A stretch of 64,000 bases of DNA from Carposina sasakii (taxonomy: Eukaryota > Arthropoda > Insecta > Lepidoptera > Carposinidae): assembly GCA_014607495.2 (NCBI GenBank), contig CP053152.1, positions 6,324,001 through 6,388,000 on the forward strand, in the 5' to 3' direction. Under the pieces are notes generated by a model. That model saw only the letters and a program-made list of their open reading frames with translations, was not told the origin of the DNA and did not search any database. Numbering within the stretch: the stretch's first letter is position 1; every line of letters begins with the position of its first letter. The position numbers and the translations under genes are program-made. Of the stretch, positions 16,903-64,000 are shown piece after piece.

Positions 16903-19360
16903 TTCAAATTCAAATTCAAATTCAAAATCATTTATTCAACATGAAAGCATTAACACTTGTTTGTTGATTGTCTAATTATATGTTACTTTCTATGTTCGCA
17001 TCCCAAAAATGAAACCGCTACCAAACAAAAAAGGAGGTGAATTTAAACAACCCAAAAATAAATAAATCGCAAAGCTTTTGCTTTGGCAACGGTCACCATC
17101 CCAAGGTGCGATTTGTTACGGTCTGTCAGGCATAAGTTAGCGATTCGGGGCTAATAGCCACCAACGTGGAGAATAAGAGTTAAGGTCGCCTAAAGATGAA
17201 ATCCAGAAGAGCTGCTACACAGTTCTCCTTTATGGCAAAACAAACATTAGGTCTGACACACCGCATGATTATACTATTACTGTTACACTATCTCAGTGAA
17301 GTGTCACTGCTTGAAAGAAGAAATAGCAAGAAAACTCCCAGCGACACAGTCAAAACTAAGTAACATATTAACAAAAGAATCTTACATTGGATAAGATATC
17401 AGATAGTAACACTTAACTCATTTAGTGTGTATAAATTCAATTATCATAACATAATTAATTTAAATTCATATAAATTACATACCCACTTACACAAAGTAAG
17501 TACAGGTCCATGTCAAATTTAAATTGTATAAATAAAAATAAAATGTGTACACAGAGTACAAGTCAATGTCAAATAAGTATCTACTAAACTATAAAATATA
17601 AAAAAGATATATATTTGTGTACAATAGTACAAGTCGACGGTAAAATGTGAATAGAAGAGCTAACGTGTCATTCAGAACTTAAATATATAATACCTATAGC
17701 TGGTAATAACATTAGAATGAAGAAGTCACGCATGATACACTATAGCGCTTCTGGTCACATTCACCAACACATATTAACTATACCTACTAAGCTAAATATA
17801 AAAGTAAAACATAGATTGCGTAACTTGGGGATGCTAGAACAATTCACTTCCATGGCTCGCTATCATTTAAATATTCTAATACTGTATAATATTCTTTCAT
17901 GCAAAGTTTTTTCTTCACAATATTTTTAAATTTACAGATAGGTAGCCCTTTGAGTGTATCTGGAAGCTTGTTGTAGAAAAGTATACATTGACCCATGAAT
18001 GATTTACTGACTTTGCGGAGACGGGACACATGAGCAACAAGTCTGTTCTTACCTCTTGTATTTATTTTGTGCACATCAGACATTTTATTAAATTTATCTA
18101 AATTCTTATGAACGTATAATAAATTTTCATAAATATAATTCGAAGCTAAAGTCATTATATTCAATTCTTTAAATTTCTCACGTAATGTGACCCTGGACCC
18201 TAAGTTTAGAATTGCACGGACAGCTCTTTTTTGTAAGATAAATATTGACTCCCAATCAGCTGCGCTTCCCCATAATAAAATACCGTATGTCATTATACTA
18301 TGGAAATAGCTAAAATAAACAATTCTAGCAGTCTCGACATCTGTCAGTAGACGAATTCTCTTAACTGCATAGGCTGCAGAACTGAGTTTCTTACTTAGTT
18401 TTTCAATGTGAGGACCCCATTGTAATTTGGCATCCAAAGTTATGCCCAAGAAAACAGTCGAATCCACTTGATCCAGTCTCTCGTCGCCTATGTAAACATC
18501 AGATCTAACTTGTTTCACGTTGGGAGTAGAAAATTTTATTAATTTCGTTTTCCTACTATTAAGAACAAGATTATTATTACTAAACCAATATAACACTTTA
18601 GAGAGAGCACTGTTCACCACGTCATATACGATGAGCTGCCTCTTTACTTTAAAAAGTAAGGAGGTGTCATCTGCAAACAATACTATTTCATGCTCATTAC
18701 CTACAAAGTATGGCAAATCATTTATATAAATACGGAAAAGAAACGGACCAAGGATTGAACCTTGTGGGACACCTATTGTGACGCGCGATCCCGGTGATCG
18801 TTTTCCGTTCACATCTACCTTCTGAATCCTATCGTTCAAATAGGACATCAGAAGATAGAGGGCCCCACCCCGTATACCATAATGTTCTAATTTTCGAATT
18901 AAAATTTCATGGTGGACACAATCAAACGCTTTTGACAAGTCACAGAACACTCCCAGTGCGTCATGTGACTCCTCCCAAGCGTCGACAATGTGTCTTAACA
19001 ACTCAACTCCCGCGTCGATAGTAGACCGCCCCTTGGTGAAGCCATACTGCTTATTGCTAAAAAGGTTGTTATTATCGAAGTGCCTGGACAATTGTTCTAA
19101 AATTAGTTTTTCAAAGATTTTACTGATTGTTGGGAGTACTGATATCGGGCGAAAATTACCTGGATCAGAAGATTCTCCTGACTTGAACAACGGAATAACT
19201 TTACTATGTTTCATTAAATCAGGAAAGACTCCTTTGTCTATACAATTATTAAAAACGCTTGCTAGCGGAGTACTTATTACATCTATTATTGAACCTAACG
19301 TTTTCACCGATAGGCCCCATAGGTCAGCGGTTTTTTTGGAGTAGATGGATTTTAAATTCG
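16903..19360 (-). mobile_element. 5'-truncated Zenon/CR1-like LINE
   Basis: The 3' end (left) is AATAAATGATTTTGAATTTG with repeated ATTTGA units, a tail typical of lepidopteran CR1/Zenon elements. About 0.9 kb of 3' UTR precedes the RT ORF at 17844-19307. Coding similarity continues upstream of the ORF's first ATG to about 19350 and then stops, so the endonuclease and ORF1 are lost through 5' truncation. Confidence 0.8.
17844..19307 (-). CDS. Non-LTR reverse transcriptase, N-terminally truncated
   Basis: 487 residues. RT landmarks appear in the expected order: NFRPISVLPTISKIFEK (51-67), the palm motif FCDLSKAFDCVHH (121-133, first catalytic Asp), GVPQGSILGPFLF (179-191), and the catalytic FADD box (211-214). 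The C-terminal region after residue 330 (SYFHSIMTYGILLWGSA) is the usual thumb and tail of CR1/Jockey-type RTs. In such elements RT copies the element's own RNA at a nicked target (target-primed reverse transcription). The ORF is uninterrupted, but the apurinic-type endonuclease that should precede it is absent. The nominal ATG is internal; similarity begins about 15 codons upstream. Probably a recent dead-on-arrival insertion. Confidence 0.85.
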   Translation of the reverse strand: MKTLGSIIDVISTPLASVFNNCIDKGVFPDLMKHSKVIPLFKSGESSDPGNFRPISVLPTISKIFEKLILEQLSRHFDNNNLFSNKQYGFTKGRSTIDAGVELLRHIVDAWEESHDALGVFCDLSKAFDCVHHEILIRKLEHYGIRGGALYLLMSYLNDRIQKVDVNGKRSPGSRVTIGVPQGSILGPFLFRIYINDLPYFVGNEHEIVLFADDTSLLFKVKRQLIVYDVVNSALSKVLYWFSNNNLVLNSRKTKLIKFSTPNVKQVRSDVYIGDERLDQVDSTVFLGITLDAKLQWGPHIEKLSKKLSSAAYAVKRIRLLTDVETARIVYFSYFHSIMTYGILLWGSAADWESIFILQKRAVRAILNLGSRVTLREKFKELNIMTLASNYIYENLLYVHKNLDKFNKMSDVHKINTRGKNRLVAHVSRLRKVSKSFMGQCILFYNKLPDTLKGLPICKFKNIVKKKLCMKEYYTVLEYLNDSEPWK

Positions 19361-20500
19361 TATTGTAAACAGTGCAGACTTTTCTAATATAATATATAAA
19401 GGCGATGAGTTAACTGAAATTGATATTTCTTTCACTAATATTTTGTGACGCATTAGGTATTTTTCATATATCTACCTAGGTGATTATAACCGAATAATCC
19501 CAGGTATTAGTTAGGTAGGTATAAACCTAGCGTGGAAGCTAATTCCACACAGTCGATCAAGTTAGTCTTAGACTAGACTGTTAATAATACCTTTACAAAG
19601 TTAAATGCGCCTTTGTTCACTAATCCCGAATGGGGATCGAATATTTACGATCCAGTAGACATCCTCGGAGTGCTAGATATTTTAGTACATATTTACCTGT
19701 TTACCTACCTACGAAGAAAAATTCAGATATGTGCTATTTATGTAGGTAGGTGTAGGTTTAGCTACGTGCCTAAAACACAATTTTATATTAAAATTGTTGA
19801 GTATTCAGAATTTACTAATATGAGATCGTTATAAAAACACTGAATTTTAGAAATATAATACAAAAATATAAGTACCCACCCAACTACCCTACCAGTGCCT
19901 CTCTCACGACTTGATTAATTTAATAATTCCTCTCAATTTCAAATACAACCAGCCGTTTAGGATAGGTTATAAATAAAATATAAATATAAACATACATACA
20001 TACACTCTATAAACATATCCTTCCTTCGCAGTCGGGTAATAAGAATTATTTAAGTACGTTTCCGGAAAATTGATGTTTTCCGGATGTTTCTAAAATCTAA
20101 TCTGGTCTACGTGACTGGCGGAACTGTACGCCGACTGTAATCACCTGACTACGCTGACAGGACCTAAATTGACTTCACTTTAACAGTTTCTTACAAGACT
20201 TGATTGTAAATAACACATAATTGGTGACAAACAAATAATAAAATTGCCATAGCGAAGTTTTCGACACAATTTGATGAAGCGCGTCAAATTTTTACTAAAC
20301 CTGTTGCATTTATACCTAGTAGAGTCACTAATGAGTGGTATACTGGGTAATCAACGCAAAAATGTTAGGCCTCATCTAGTAAAATGCAAGCGATTTACCA
20401 ACATGTGATCAACCAAATGGTACATAATTTATCTATAGTGTGTTTTGCCCACTTGCTCTAAAGTAGGTACCTATATGTAATTATGTATTTTATTTTATTT
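19361..20500. other. AT-rich intergenic DNA
   Basis: No repeat or gene recognised. The 73-residue ORF at 19613-19834 has no recognisable features. Confidence 0.4.
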
Positions 20501-25361: not shown

Positions 25362-26377
25362 AAGAGAATAAACGGGTCCTACACAGACTGGTTTACCATC
25401 GAAAAGGGTGTTAGACTGGGATGTGTAGCGTCACCGTGGCTATTCAGTCTATAAATGGACAGTTGTTTGCAAGGTTTGAAAGACGATGTTTGTGGTCTAA
25501 GAATGAATGAGTTACTTGTCAAATGCCTTCTCTATGCCGATGACATGGTTTTGCTTGCGTTTTCGGAGGAGGAGTTGCAGGAGATGGTAACAAAAATGCA
25601 TGGATCATTTGAAAGTAAAGGGATGAAGATGAATGTAAGTAAGACGAAAGTGATGGTTTTTGAAAAGGATGAGGTAATGGCGAATTGCAAAATAATGATT
25701 GGCAAAGAAAGATTGGAGCAAGTGACTGAGTTCGTGTATCTGGGGACTTTGTTTACAAGAGATGGTAAGCATGACAAAGATATTGCAAGGAGAGTGAATG
25801 CTGGAAATCGGGTGAATGGGGCACTTAATTCTTTTATGAGTAGCCAGAAAGTGTCGCAAGCGGCACGTCTGGCTGTTCATGGAGGTGTTTTGGTGCCGAC
25901 TCTTATGTATGGAAGTGAAAGTATGGCAGAAACCAAAACATCAAAGTCAAGTGAATGCAGTGGAAATGAGAGCATTGAGAAGTATGTGTGGAGTCAATTT
26001 GAAAGATAGGATATGAAATGAGGTGATCAGAAAGAAGTGTGGTATAAATGAGGACGTGGTGACTAAGATTGAGAAAGGTATGTTGAGGTGGTTTGTGCAT
26101 GTGGAGAGGATGAGTGAAAGTACACTGACAAAGAAAGTGTATAAGGGAAGAGTGGATGGAAGGGTTGGAAGGGGAAGACCTCGCCGGACTTTCACCGATC
26201 AAATTGGTGAAATTCTAAATAAAGGTCAGGTCAAGAGTACCCTAAACCGACGAGCGTGCATGAAGAATATAATGAAAGTAGATGAAGCGAAAGAGGTGTG
26301 TCAGGATCGTAGCAAATGGAGATCCGTGATCTCTGCCTACCCCTCCGGGAAAGAGGCGTGATTATTATGTATGTATG
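25362..26377 (+). mobile_element. 5'-truncated LINE (Daphne/Dong-like) with target duplications
   Basis: The 3' end after the last codons (AYPSGKEA) is GGCGTGATTATTATG followed by ATGT repeats. TATGTACCTTGT occurs at 25350-25361 and 26378-26389 as a 12-bp target duplication overlapping the tail. Truncation lies inside the RT. A short fragment of the same family is at 57795-57920. Confidence 0.8.
25372..26361 (+). pseudogene. Broken RT C-terminal region of the LINE
   Basis: Two open segments in different frames. The first, 25455-26009, carries the catalytic box LLYADDMVLLA and the downstream FVYLGTLFTRDGK and ALNSFM segments. The second, 26023-26361, reads MLRWFVHVERM, GRVGRGRPRRTF and ends KWRSVISAYPSGKEA. 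Upstream of 25455 the reading (FTIEKGVRLGCVASP) is open to a TAA just before the nominal ATG, so there is one nonsense codon plus at least one frameshift near 26005-26020. The ADD box and the GRGRPR tail are usual in TATG-tailed lepidopteran LINEs. Non-functional. Confidence 0.8.
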
Positions 26378-59820: not shown

Positions 59821-60103
59821 TGACGTAGATGGGTCGAATGGCGTGCCGTTAGGTGTGTCCGACATCTTCCAAAATCCGAAATAAAGAATGCGGCGTGTAG
59901 TAAACAAGCTTAATTAGGAATCACAAACACTTTCACTGTATCTACGCACAAGATTACTAGGATTCTAGCGGATAACGTAGAAACGTGGTAAGTACAAGAC
60001 AGAGGCTGATTAGCACCCGTGCTTCGCTCGACAGACGCAACAAGCAAGCGACGAATACCCTCCGGCTCAATTCAAACGACCCGGTGGTCGTTGTAAATCT
60101 ACA
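59821..60103 (-). repeat. 3' LTR
   Basis: 283 bp. On the minus strand it begins TGTAGATTTACAACGACC and ends CCCATCTACGTCA, with TG...CA ends and short inverted termini (TGTAGAT/ATCTACGTCA). Positions 59821-60061 are identical to 63760-64000. The LTR contains the gag start codon and its first codons (MSDTPNGTPFDPST). Confidence 0.85.
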
Positions 60104-60594
60104 GTGGCGCCCTCTCAGTACTCTGTCTTGTCTTTACCCAAGTGACAGCTGTCCTCAAGTCAGTGATAGCTGTCGACTTGACGTTTCTAACTTCAACGAT
60201 TGAAAATAGATGGCGTTGGAGATCCGACTGTAGGATATGACATCTTGATCTCCGACACGGCCATTTTGACAACTCACGCGTCCTCGCGTGGGGTTTCTGG
60301 AAAGAAAGAGGATTTTGCAAAGTAACATGTCTCACGCTCGGTCTTTCTGACCATTGGGACAGTAAAAACTTCATTTAAACGTTACTAAACCTTTATTTCA
60401 AACGAACCAATATCATCATAATCAAAATTGAAAATCATTTTACTATACCAAATTGTTACAAATTTACTTGCATACTATTAAACAAAGAAATCGACTATAA
60501 TCGTCACACACAAGGTAAATAATTCCAAAACTAGGCTACAGTATACACAATCCATATAGAGTAACGTCAGTCAAGTAAGTCTAGTTGCTTCAAT
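60104..60594 (-). other. Non-coding 3' region of the LTR element
   Basis: No ORF on the element's coding strand. Immediately before the 3' LTR the minus strand reads ACTGAGAGGGCGCCAC, a short purine-rich stretch that could serve as polypurine tract. Confidence 0.45.
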
Positions 60595-60599
60595 CTAGC

Positions 60600-60800
60600 A
60601 ACTCTTGGAAACTTCCATCCAGCTTCCGTAAACCAGTCTAGTCACTTCCATCCAGTGACTCTTGGAAACTTCCATCCAGCTTCCGTATACCAGTCTAGTC
60701 ACTTCCATCCAGTGACTCTTGGAAACTTCCATCCAGCTTCCGTATACCAGTCTAGTCACTTCCATCCAGTGACTCTTGAATACCTCTATCCGGTATCCGT
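60600..60800 (-). repeat. 57-bp tandem repeat, about 3.5 units
   Basis: AAACTTCCATCCAGCTTCCG recurs at 60609, 60666 and 60723, exactly 57 bp apart, with a degenerate unit after it. Each unit also has the internal echo CACTTCCATCCAG. 57 is 19 codons, so a 72-codon minus-strand ORF (60595-60813) stays open, but it is probably non-coding. Confidence 0.85.
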
Positions 60801-60828
60801 AAACCACTCTCAATCAGTCAACTCAACA

Positions 60829-61626
60829 TTAATTAGAACATGACGGTCCATCCCCGTCAAGTTCGCACAGATTATCATCACGGTCACATGTCAGCATGTC
60901 ATTGGTAATGTCATTCGCAGGCATTCGCCTAAGTCTGTCATGTGCGTACTTATAGGTTCTATTGGAATTAAGGGCTTTAAGAACATAACGATTACCTTCA
61001 AGTACCTCCGATACCCTAAAAGGACCTCTATACTTCGGATCAATTAATCGAATTTCGAGTTCACCTGTAGTTACACGAGTTTTTGGCAAACCTGTTGTAA
61101 AATAACTGGAATATTCACCTAAAATAGTTAAAAGATCTGACTTTTTACAAGAGGGTATATCTGTGTCAACATTACTAAAGTCGTTACTGATACTAGAATC
61201 GGTTAAAACGTCACAATTTAAAACTGTCAAATTATTTTGTTTTGAAATGCTAAAATTATTTGTTGACAAGTTAATAACGAAGCCTTGACTCAATATTTCA
61301 CGACCTAGCATAATATCACTACGCATATACACATCGGGTAAAACATGTAATAAAAGTTCTAAACAATAATCATTAATTTCAACATTACACAGTATTTGCT
61401 GGGTGCTGAATACACTGGTTTGACCAATTCCCGTTAGAGAGACAGTTTTAGCAATTCTTTTACCATTGAAACTTGATGCAACGCTTTCTTTTATTAGTGA
61501 ACACTCAGCACCCGAATCAAAATGAAAATCATAAAATCTACCTTGATTATTAAGAGCGCCGGTCGGTGGTAAAGCGGTAAGTGCAACTATCTTTCGTGGA
61601 TTCGGACGAATTTGACCTCGGCGCAC
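60829..61626 (-). pseudogene. Chimeric ORF: RT edge, second protease, integrase C-terminus
   Basis: 265 codons. Residues 1-22 (RRGQIRPNPRKIVALTALPP) are the RT segment following the KCSFLK block. From about residue 24 it switches to a retroviral-type aspartic protease: FHFDSGAECSLIKES (catalytic Asp37-Ser-Gly) and DIMLGREIL (105-112). The protease-RT spacer follows, to EIRLIDP. At residue 198 it switches again to the integrase C-terminal domain, KYRGPFRVSEVL and YAHDRLRRMP. The protease is clearly related to but different from that in 62197-63846, so it comes from another member of the family. Its gag, the rest of RT, RNase H and the integrase catalytic core are absent. An in-frame TAA (about 61651) separates this ORF from the RT upstream. 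It probably arose by template switching between two element RNAs; no independent function is expected. Confidence 0.8.
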
Positions 61627-61650
61627 CTCGAAGCCTAGGTACTCTACTTT

Positions 61651-62079
61651 TTATTTCAGGAATGAGCACTTTTTAGGATTTAACGAAAATCCCTTCCCAG
61701 AAAGAACTTCTAATACTACCTTTAGTCTATCGAAAGCTTCGTCGATGTTACTGGCCACAACTAGCACGTCATCCATGTACACTACAACGTACTTGTTCAC
61801 GAGATCGCCTAGAGCATGTATGAGAGCACGTTGAAACACTGCAGGAGCATTTTTCAAACCGAAGGGCATAGTAAGGTACTCATACTGACCTTCAGTTGTC
61901 ACGAATGCTGTGCGCTCTATGGACTCCGACTCGATAGGGATCTGGTGAAATCCCGATGCTAAATCGAAAATTGTAAAAAAATGTCCTCCGTGCAACCTAG
62001 CAATCTGTTCAGATATGAGTGGTAAAGGAAAACGGTCAGCAACGGTGTTATCGTTCAACTCCCTATAATCGACACACAT
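61651..62079 (-). pseudogene. Ty3/gypsy RT palm fragment
   Basis: 142 codons from MCVDYRELN to KKCSFLK. RT motifs are in order: DYRELND, FPLPLISEQI, FFTIFDLASGFHQIPI (first catalytic Asp), YLTMPFGLKNAPAVFQ, and the catalytic VVVYMDDVLV box. In intact elements RT copies the RNA genome in the particle. Upstream RT coding (EINELL-type region to LLVKKK) continues in another frame to about 62200: a run of nine A on the coding strand (62097-62105) carries a frameshift. Downstream, a TAA ends it before VEYLGFEV. So it is broken at both sides, and the thumb, connection and RNase H are lost. Confidence 0.85.
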
Positions 62080-62196
62080 TCTATCTGAACCGTCTTTTTT
62101 TTTACCAAAAGTATCGGGCTTGCGAACGGTGAAGAACTAGGTCTAATTACCTTAGCATTAAGCAGCTCGTTGATCTTGCCCCTCACAATCTGACGT

Positions 62197-63846
62197 TCAT
62201 CTGGGGTCAGCCTGTATGGGCGACGATTTACCGTCTACGAGCCGTATCTGCATAGGTTCAGTGTCAGCAGGAGAAGTAGGTGTACCGGTAATGAAACTAA
62301 GCTTGAACCGTTCTAAAATCTCAATCAACCTAGGTCTGTATTCATTACTAACGTCAGTATCTACCAAGTCAAGGTCTATACCATTATTTGCAACTACATC
62401 ACATGATTCGACTATGTTAATTTTCTCGAAACGTACTTTATCTACCGACATATGTACAGTCAAACCGATAGCTAGAATTTCACGTCCGATCATAATGTTG
62501 TATCGCAAACAATGGTCAGGTAAAACATGAAGGAGTATCTCAAAGTTAATATTGTCAATGTCAATTGTCGTTAAAATTTGCATGGTCGAGGCTATAGAAG
62601 TTTGTCCTATACCAGTCATAGAAACATTGTCATAAATTCGCTTACCACTAAATTTCAAAGCAATCGATTCTTTAACTAAGGAACACTCTGAACCTGAGTC
62701 GTAAGTAAATGGGAATGACTCACCAGAGTGACGCAGAGAACCCGAAGGCGCATTCACAATGCACACGTCTACTCGCTTTTCCTTAGCTGGATCAGTTCCA
62801 GTGCCGCCGCCGGTACCGTTGTTCCCCTCCTTGATTTTCCTCTTCGGGCAGTCGGATGCATAGTGGCCTTGTTCCCGGCAGTTGAAGCAGGTGATGCGAT
62901 CGGTTCTCCCTGTAGGTTGGTTGGTCGAGTTATGGTCCCCGTGAAAGGAACTGTGTTTGGACCGGTCATCTTGCTTCTTCGAATTGGCTTTGTTGCGACA
63001 TTGAAGAGATTTGTGGCCTAGTTGTCCACAATTAAAGCACTTGATGGTCACAGCAGATCCATTAGGTCGGTTTCTTTTTAGGTCGGGTCCATCACGATAA
63101 ATACTTGATGAATAACTTCTCTTCAGGAACGAGACAGCCTTCAGTTCCTTTTGTAAATGGTTACGCGTCTTGATATCAGTCGTTATAGCAATCCTCTGAA
63201 CACGTGGCTCTTGTTTTGAAATATGAGCTAAGACAGTGGCTGTTGCTATCTGTTCTGTAGTCAGTCCATTCCACCTTGCCATTAAGGATGTTATGAGGGT
63301 AGCGGCGTATGAGGCCAGGCACTCGTTATCTCTCGGTTTCTTGTCGTGCATACTGATGAGAAAGGAAGCAGCAGTTTCAGGACAGTCATACCTTGCTACG
63401 AAAAGCTCCTTAAAATCGGCCCACGTCATATTAGGAAACGATATTGAAGACAGCCAAGATGATGCTTCGCCCTTGAGTGCGTGGCTTAACGCGATCATCA
63501 GAGAAGATCCATGGCGATGTCGATCTGTGATACACATGTCCGCGGTCGTTATCCAAGCTCGGGCGTCGATGTCTCTTTTCTCTGGGTCGAAATCAGGAAG
63601 GCGAATAGAGTCCGAAGATGCAGGTAGTTTTATTGCTTGCACCAACGCCAGAAAATTTTGATTTTGTTGCTCGAAGAGAAGACGCCATTTTTCTTCGCTC
63701 GAGTCACTATTTGAAGCACGTGTTTCATGTGGGTGATCCGGGTTGCATCCCACTTCTGATGACGTAGATGGGTCGAATGGCGTGCCGTTAGGTGTGTCCG
63801 ACATCTTCCAAAATCCGAAATAAAGAATGCGGCGTGTAGTAAACAA
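62197..63846 (-). CDS. Gag-protease polyprotein of the LTR element
   Basis: 549 codons open. The likely start is Met15 (MSDTPNG, at about 63804), which lies inside the LTR; the first 14 codons are probably 5' UTR. The capsid-like region (residues 80-240) has WLSSISFPNMTWADFKELF and a Glu/Arg-rich helical stretch. Two CCHC zinc knuckles follow, CFNCGQLGHKSLQC (270-283) and CFNCREQGHYASDC (320-333), typical of nucleocapsid RNA binding. An aspartic protease comes next: FTYDSGSECSLVKES (Asp383-Ser-Gly) and IMIGREIL. Gag and protease are in one frame without a shift site. The ORF ends just after the protease-RT spacer (MQIRLVDG), where a frameshift near 62235 breaks the run into RT. Gag and protease look intact, so this copy may still make particles. 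Confidence 0.85.
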   Translation of the reverse strand: MFTTRRILYFGFWKMSDTPNGTPFDPSTSSEVGCNPDHPHETRASNSDSSEEKWRLLFEQQNQNFLALVQAIKLPASSDSIRLPDFDPEKRDIDARAWITTADMCITDRHRHGSSLMIALSHALKGEASSWLSSISFPNMTWADFKELFVARYDCPETAASFLISMHDKKPRDNECLASYAATLITSLMARWNGLTTEQIATATVLAHISKQEPRVQRIAITTDIKTRNHLQKELKAVSFLKRSYSSSIYRDGPDLKRNRPNGSAVTIKCFNCGQLGHKSLQCRNKANSKKQDDRSKHSSFHGDHNSTNQPTGRTDRITCFNCREQGHYASDCPKRKIKEGNNGTGGGTGTDPAKEKRVDVCIVNAPSGSLRHSGESFPFTYDSGSECSLVKESIALKFSGKRIYDNVSMTGIGQTSIASTMQILTTIDIDNINFEILLHVLPDHCLRYNIMIGREILAIGLTVHMSVDKVRFEKINIVESCDVVANNGIDLDLVDTDVSNEYRPRLIEILERFKLSFITGTPTSPADTEPMQIRLVDGKSSPIQADPR

Positions 63847-64000
63847 GCTTAATTAGGAATCACAAACACTTTCACTGTATCTACGCACAAGATTACTAGG
63901 ATTCTAGCGGATAACGTAGAAACGTGGTAAGTACAAGACAGAGGCTGATTAGCACCCGTGCTTCGCTCGACAGACGCAACAAGCAAGCGACGAATACCCT
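63760..64000 (-). repeat. 5' LTR, truncated by the window end
   Basis: 241 bp identical to 59821-60061; 42 bp remain outside the window. Directly inside it the minus strand reads TCAGAAGTGGGATG, the position of a tRNA primer-binding site. It looks like a tRNA-Leu 3' region as I recall it, but this was not checked. Confidence 0.85.

What the first reader, a model, noticed from the sequence alone, without database searches (positions are those of the whole stretch)
59821..64000. Young LTR retrotransposon with a mosaic interior and two different proteases
Seen: LTRs identical over 241 bp, yet the interior runs gag-PR1, partial RT, PR2, integrase tail. PR2 (FHFDSGAECSLIKES) is diverged from PR1 (FTYDSGSECSLVKES), so it is not a simple tandem duplication but a piece of a second subfamily. 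The junctions fall after TALPP in RT and at DPKYRGPF in integrase. Established: retroviral and Ty3-type RTs switch templates between co-packaged RNAs. Inference: a recombinant genome formed by two switches was packaged, reverse-transcribed and integrated in trans.
Basis: partly seen in the sequence, partly recalled or inferred. Interest (0 to 1): 0.75.

Follow-up and report, generated by a model that had tools for sequence, protein, structure and literature searches.

The report
Hybrid retrotransposon that outnumbers its parent
An insect genome, probably of a moth or butterfly, carries hundreds of copies of a defective jumping element whose middle was replaced by the protease of a cousin element; the hybrid arrangement is found far more often than the parental one, a likely natural case of a parasite living off a parasite.

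Summary
The element (minus strand, 59821 to about 64196) is a Ty3-type LTR retrotransposon with identical 437-bp LTRs and a 4-bp target duplication. The order gag, PR1, RT, PR2, integrase tail is real. Trees put PR1, RT and (more weakly) the integrase tail with one full-length relative, P0067, and PR2 with another lineage (P0001/P0084). So the mosaic is A-B-A: a 178-aa foreign protease sits where RNase H and most of the integrase should be. It is not unique: 18 of 40 other fetched places have both junctions, and the genome holds 281 (junction 1) and 298 (junction 2) pattern matches, against 19 for the parental form of junction 1. Chimeric copies lie at separate sites, so the hybrid has retransposed, most likely in trans. 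A further deletion (134 matches) occurs with PR2 and, in one fetched copy, without it; chimeric and other copies differ beside PR2 but not in LTR, PR1 or gag, as expected if they recombine. Template switching is the best-supported origin but is inferred; the PR2 donor was not found (54 of 60 genome searches were unanswered). PR2 shows no sign of selection, with low power.

The parts
59821..60257 (-). 3' LTR (437 bp)
   Evidence: identical to the 5' copy over 437 bp, TG...CA ends, CATA target duplication
63760..64000 (-). 5' LTR, the part inside the window; continues to 64196 outside it; carries the gag start codon at 63804
63740..63759 (-). primer-binding-site-like stretch next to the 5' LTR, read as SEVGCNP within gag
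   Evidence: position; tRNA-Leu match recalled; SEVG in the first 70 residues of 69 of 106 eligible relatives, near-variants in 21, neither in 16
62770..63804 (-). gag with CCHC zinc knuckles (lineage A)
   Evidence: Pfam zf-CCHC 1.8e-10, 2 stretches; 75% identical to P0067
62227..62769 (-). PR1, first aspartic protease (lineage A)
   Evidence: 79% to P0067, sister of P0067 99/95; Pfam below cut-off
61569..62136 (-). reverse transcriptase piece (lineage A); frame broken upstream of it and by a stop at 61651
   Evidence: Pfam RVT_1 1.4e-29; 89% to P0067; pairing with P0084 rejected
61562..61571 (-). junction 1, RT to PR2 (LPP|TG)
   Evidence: 281 matches in the genome, parental form 19
61033..61566 (-). 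PR2, second aspartic protease (lineage B)
   Evidence: 69% to P0001, 63% to P0084; group of three 95/89; Pfam Asp_protease_2 E 0.0017, below cut-off
61037..61043 (-). junction 2, PR2 to integrase tail; TTGATCC common to the chimera and native A copies
   Evidence: 298 matches in the genome; native A sequence in fetched copies
60829..61041 (-). integrase C-terminal tail (lineage A)
   Evidence: sister of P0067 97/94
60578..60805 (-). 57-bp tandem repeats between the integrase tail and the 3' LTR

Best explanation
This is one copy of a non-autonomous LTR retrotransposon family that goes back to one A-B-A recombination. During reverse transcription the growing strand most likely left an A RNA inside the integrase tail, copied the protease part of a co-packaged B RNA, and returned to A near the end of RT, guided by short shared sequence. 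The product kept A's LTRs, leader, gag and 3' end, so A proteins could package, copy and insert it. It then amplified to some 281-298 junction-bearing copies and far outnumbers the parental arrangement at junction 1, while still exchanging sequence with it. Shown: A-B-A structure, the same junctions in many copies, separate insertions, loss of RNase H and integrase core. Inferred: that reverse transcriptase did the switching, and mobilisation in trans. Indicated by the pattern of variation: continued exchange between the classes.
For: A-B-A by trees; outside the protease no stretch in the 40 fetched places is closer to P0084 than to P0067. Both junctions in 18 of 40 fetched places, 8 without and 10 with a further deletion. 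281/298 matches against 19. Identical 4-bp flanks in 21 of 21 copies with both LTRs whole, 17 of them chimeric. LTR mismatches 0-4 per about 437 bp in those 17, none in 7. The extra deletion (134 matches) is found with PR2 (10 fetched copies) and in one copy, L050, without it, at the same breakpoint, while other copies with and without PR2 lack it. Chimeric and other copies do not differ in LTR (p 0.396), PR1 (0.337) or gag (0.099), are near the line in the 3' untranslated part (0.06) and integrase tail (0.047), and differ in the RT tail beside PR2 (0.001) (six regions, L035 left out). Two or more shared residues arise at 1.0% of random junctions between proxy proteins. 0 of 150 relatives with a protease match have two.
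Against: The B donor was not found in this genome. Shared bases at junction 1 cannot be fixed without it and may be only 2. Microhomology is also made by DNA end joining. No read data, so single-copy details such as frame breaks may be assembly errors, above all in homopolymers. Pairing of the integrase tail with P0084 is not formally rejected (p 0.106). The fourth combination of deletion and PR2 rests on one copy. PR2 diversity among chimeric copies (0.455%) is no lower than that of the RT tail (0.481%) or much lower than gag (0.524%), so it does not by itself mark a separate history. 6 of the 21 flank pairs are plain TA repeats, where a 4-bp match says little.
Confidence: 0.75

Rival explanations
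1. A B element inserted inside an A copy, and two deletions by end joining left only the B protease; that copy was then transcribed and amplified in trans.
For: Gives the same A-B-A order; deletions whose two sides overlap by several bases are frequent in this family.
Against: Needs an insertion plus two deletions, both keeping the reading frame, before amplification. In the 40 fetched places no stretch outside the protease is closer to P0084 than to P0067; only these 40 were looked at.
Confidence: 0.13
2. A DNA break in an A copy was repaired using a B copy as template (a patch by synthesis), and that copy was then amplified.
For: A patch of limited length with short shared sequence at both ends.
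Against: The signs of exchange between chimeric and other copies show that an exchange process is at work in this family anyway, which makes a separate repair event unnecessary; they do not exclude it.
Confidence: 0.08
3. Assembly artefact or chance resemblance.
For: None beyond the absence of read data.
Against: 281 and 298 junction matches, control 0; 4-bp target duplications in 21 of 21.
Confidence: 0.01

Closest known systems
Recombination among Onsen LTR retrotransposons in Arabidopsis (PMC5668417; abstract and discussion read)
   Same: Pairwise recombination of packaged RNAs during a burst; old members re-enter transposition.
   Different: There the exchange is within one family; here a protease from a clearly different lineage was patched in at unlike places and the product amplified to hundreds of copies.
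R2 and R2/R1 hybrid SIDEs of Drosophila (PMC3414825; abstract read)
   Same: Internally deleted or hybrid non-autonomous retrotransposons moved by the machinery of full-length elements; template jumps proposed.
   Different: Non-LTR elements; hybrids joined end to end, not an internal patch.
Mag-lineage Ty3/gypsy elements of the mosquito Culex (PMC3286476; passages and the Mag section read)
   Same: Insect gypsy elements whose primer site fits tRNA-Leu or tRNA-Ser.
   Different: The passages read mention no two-protease member; the window element was not tested against a Mag reference.

Membership tests
Ty3/gypsy LTR retrotransposon | LTRs with TG...CA ends and a short target duplication | tested here: met
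   437 bp, identical; 4-bp duplication in the window copy and in 21 of 21 other copies with both LTRs whole
Ty3/gypsy LTR retrotransposon | order PR-RT-RNase H-integrase in the full-length relative | tested here: met
   P0067: RT 572-732, RNase H 795-923 and 820-923, integrase zinc 1030-1086, core 1106-1198; its protease before RT by alignment
Ty3/gypsy LTR retrotransposon | the window copy itself encodes RNase H and integrase core | tested here: not met
   P0067 residues about 753-1325 have no counterpart between the junctions; hence a non-autonomous derivative
Mag lineage | primer site complementary to tRNA-Leu or tRNA-Ser | tested here: inconclusive
   TCAGAAGTGGGAT at 63747-63759 fits tRNA-Leu as recalled; no tRNA of this genome was fetched
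Mag lineage | RT groups with the Mag element | not tested
   no Mag reference was included in the trees
non-autonomous LTR family moved in trans | many separate insertions of an element lacking essential functions | tested here: met
non-autonomous LTR family moved in trans | dependence on a helper shown by experiment | not testable with these tools
   needs a mobilisation assay

The most novel reading that the evidence does not exclude
The chimera behaves like a defective interfering genome of a retrotransposon: its products (Gag-PR1, or an RT-PR2-integrase-tail frame that is open in 5 of the 8 chimeric copies without the further deletion) or its shorter RNA outcompete the helper, so that the family is now mostly parasite, and the extra protease gives it an edge.
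Probability: 0.12. Interest if true: 0.8.

Novelty: new variant of a known kind. Interest (0 to 1): 0.55.

Why it matters
It gives a countable natural case in an insect of a recombinant retrotransposon with a foreign protease patch that out-amplified its parent (281 against 19 matches at the same junction). Because every junction is a fixed marker, the family makes recombination rate, helper-parasite balance and the loss of autonomous elements testable by counting in other individuals and species.

Tried and rejected
Tried without result: RT piece against viral contigs (no relative). Nine paper searches (one search listed no paper) were judged by titles and the starts of abstracts, and I saw nothing in the listings that describes this element, a two-protease LTR family, or a gag start inside the LTR of this lineage; that is the only basis for calling it undescribed. 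Rejected: tandem duplication of PR1; PR2 and integrase tail coming as one piece (tail weakly); an LTR of 241 bp; and my own early guess of an LTR start near 60103 (searched as a candidate, corrected). Selection on PR2: 17 replacement and 4 silent changes in 18 copies, expected replacement fraction 0.751, p 0.81; a noncoding control gave 12 and 4, p 0.51; low power. The sample of 40 is biased: 40 other matches returned by a search that scored the best of 820 candidates by 3'-end similarity. It holds 17 copies with native A sequence on the integrase side, far more than 281:19 would suggest; the 19 also leaves out A copies that are deleted through that site. The 32 relatives in the trees were chosen by me from 76 full-length ones.

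Full report
What is there. The element lies on the minus strand. From its 5' end it has an LTR (63760-64196, partly outside the window), gag, a first protease PR1, a reverse transcriptase piece, a second protease PR2, the integrase C-terminal tail, 57-bp repeats and a 3' LTR (59821-60257). The two LTRs are identical over 437 bp and flanked by CATA on both sides. Pfam finds zinc knuckles and RT clearly but both proteases only below its curated cut-offs. The best named relatives of the gag-PR1 frame are Lepidoptera (Spodoptera exigua, 54%; Eumeta japonica); other named hits include bees, flies, a beetle and a bug, and also a weak fungal and a frog record. The genome holding the window has 399 Mb in 31 contigs and no name here, so 'moth or butterfly' is an inference.

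Two lineages. In trees with 32 relatives chosen from 76 full-length ones, PR1 is the sister of P0067 (99/95) and the integrase tail is the sister of P0067 (97/94; only 3 of 30 inner branches of that tree are firm). RT alone sits in a set of three (97/91) with P0067 and P0066 as its nearest rows, and pairing it with P0084 is rejected. PR2 lies with P0001 and P0084 (95/89). Holding PR1 and PR2 together costs 106.5 log-likelihood units. Identities agree: P0067 is 75% identical to gag, 79% to PR1, 89% to RT, 74% to the integrase tail, but 44% to PR2. So only PR2 is foreign. The residues of P0067 that have no counterpart in the window (about 753-1325) hold RNase H, the integrase zinc domain and the integrase core. 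Pairing the short tail with P0084 is not formally rejected (p 0.106).

Junctions. At junction 1 P0067 reads ..TALPPPNTV.. and P0084 ..DPPTGKL..; the window reads ..TALPPTGAL... At junction 2 P0084 reads ..RLVDP.. (other relatives ..RLIDP..) and P0067 ..KLDPKFRGP..; the window reads ..RLIDPKYRGP... Two or more shared residues occur at about 1.0% of random junctions between proxy proteins. Native A copies in the same genome give ..GCTTGATCCGAAG.. at junction 2 against ..AATTGATCCGAAG.. in the chimera, TTGATCC in common, and ..GCTTTACCGCCACCGAAC.. at junction 1 against ..GCTTTACCACCGACC... The B side is not known at the DNA level, so at junction 1 only two shared bases are likely.

The chimera is a family. 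Of 40 other places fetched, 18 have both junctions, 3 more (L027, L042, L055) have junction 2 with part of PR2, 17 have native A sequence on the integrase side, and 2 are short (L045, L061). Eight of the 18 lack, and ten carry, a further deletion joining PR1 to RT. Of the eight, L053 has an insertion and L035 is only about 93% like the window. Whole-genome pattern counts with up to 2 mismatches: junction 1 281, junction 2 298, native A at junction 1 19, the further deletion 134; the reversed control gave 0 each time. A 201-bp query across junction 1 matched over its full length at 99-100% in 40 of 40 scored places out of 327 candidates. On contigs C1 and C2, 16 of the 17 junction-1 places listed have a listed junction-2 match about 522 bases away (lists, read by eye). 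0 of 150 relatives with a protease match have a second one. Outside the protease, no stretch in the 40 places is closer to P0084 than to P0067; what follows the broken PR2 in L027 and L042 matches none of four proxy proteins.

It moved. All 21 fetched copies with two whole LTRs have identical 4-bp flanks; 17 of them are chimeric and lie on ten contigs. Six of the 21 flank pairs are plain TA repeats and say little. LTR mismatches in the 17 are 0 to 4 per about 437 bp, 22 in all, none in 7, gaps not counted. With a recalled lepidopteran rate near 3e-9 per site and generation this is of the order of half a million generations, a rough figure.

It seems to recombine. The further deletion occurs with PR2 in ten fetched copies and without PR2 in one, L050, with the same bases at the breakpoint; copies lacking it exist with and without PR2. 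Chimeric copies (17 plus the window; L035 left out as an outlier) and the others are not distinguishable in LTR (p 0.396), PR1 (0.337) and gag (0.099), lie near the line in the 3' untranslated part (0.06) and the integrase tail (0.047), and differ in the RT tail beside PR2 (0.001). With six tests only the last stands firmly. Diversity among chimeric copies is 0.455% in PR2, 0.481% in the RT tail, 0.524% in gag, 0.81% in the integrase tail, 0.946% in PR1 and 1.07-1.09% in LTR and 3' untranslated part. This fits exchange between co-packaged RNAs. In L055 a deletion joins PR2 to PR1, where the two alignments overlap by about 53 bases.

Function. PR2 shows no excess of silent changes (17 replacement, 4 silent, p 0.81); gag shows some in the other copies (p 0.009; 8 of 22 copies usable) and less in chimeric ones (p 0.098; 17 of 18). 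So gag may matter and PR2 looks like a passenger, with low power. In the window copy the frame is broken between PR1 and RT and by a stop at 61651. In 5 of the 8 chimeric copies without the further deletion RT-PR2-tail is one open frame. In three of these the gag-PR1 frame runs open up to a homopolymer run of varying length, and RT continues in another frame. This may partly be assembly error.

Verdict. What was missed is that the recombinant became a large family. Template switching with helper proteins is the best explanation and is inferred, not shown. Known parallels are Onsen recombination (PMC5668417, abstract and discussion) and R2/R1 hybrid elements (PMC3414825, abstract).

Noticed in passing
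63740-63804 (minus): Gag begins inside the LTR and the primer-site-like sequence is read as SEVG; SEVG lies within the first 70 residues in 69 of 106 eligible relatives, near-variants in 21, neither in 16, so the primer site seems to be coding across a wide insect lineage.
   Followed up: partly
60578-60805: 57-bp tandem repeats near the 3' LTR; the length of this part differs between copies by steps near 57.
   Followed up: no
about 62107: A homopolymer run between PR1 and RT differs in length between copies (8 to 12) and decides the frame; slippage or sequencing error.
   Followed up: partly
L048, L051, L057, L058: Four copies share another deletion joining PR1 to the RNase H-integrase side, a second amplified deletion form.
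   Followed up: no
L055: Deletion between PR2 and PR1 whose two alignments overlap by about 53 bases, perhaps an exchange between the two proteases.
   Followed up: no
P0008: A relative from an unnamed contig joins the start of RT directly to the integrase side: the same kind of deletion elsewhere.
   Followed up: no
17844-19409 (minus) and 25455-26009 (plus): Two other reverse transcriptase stretches in the window.
   Followed up: no
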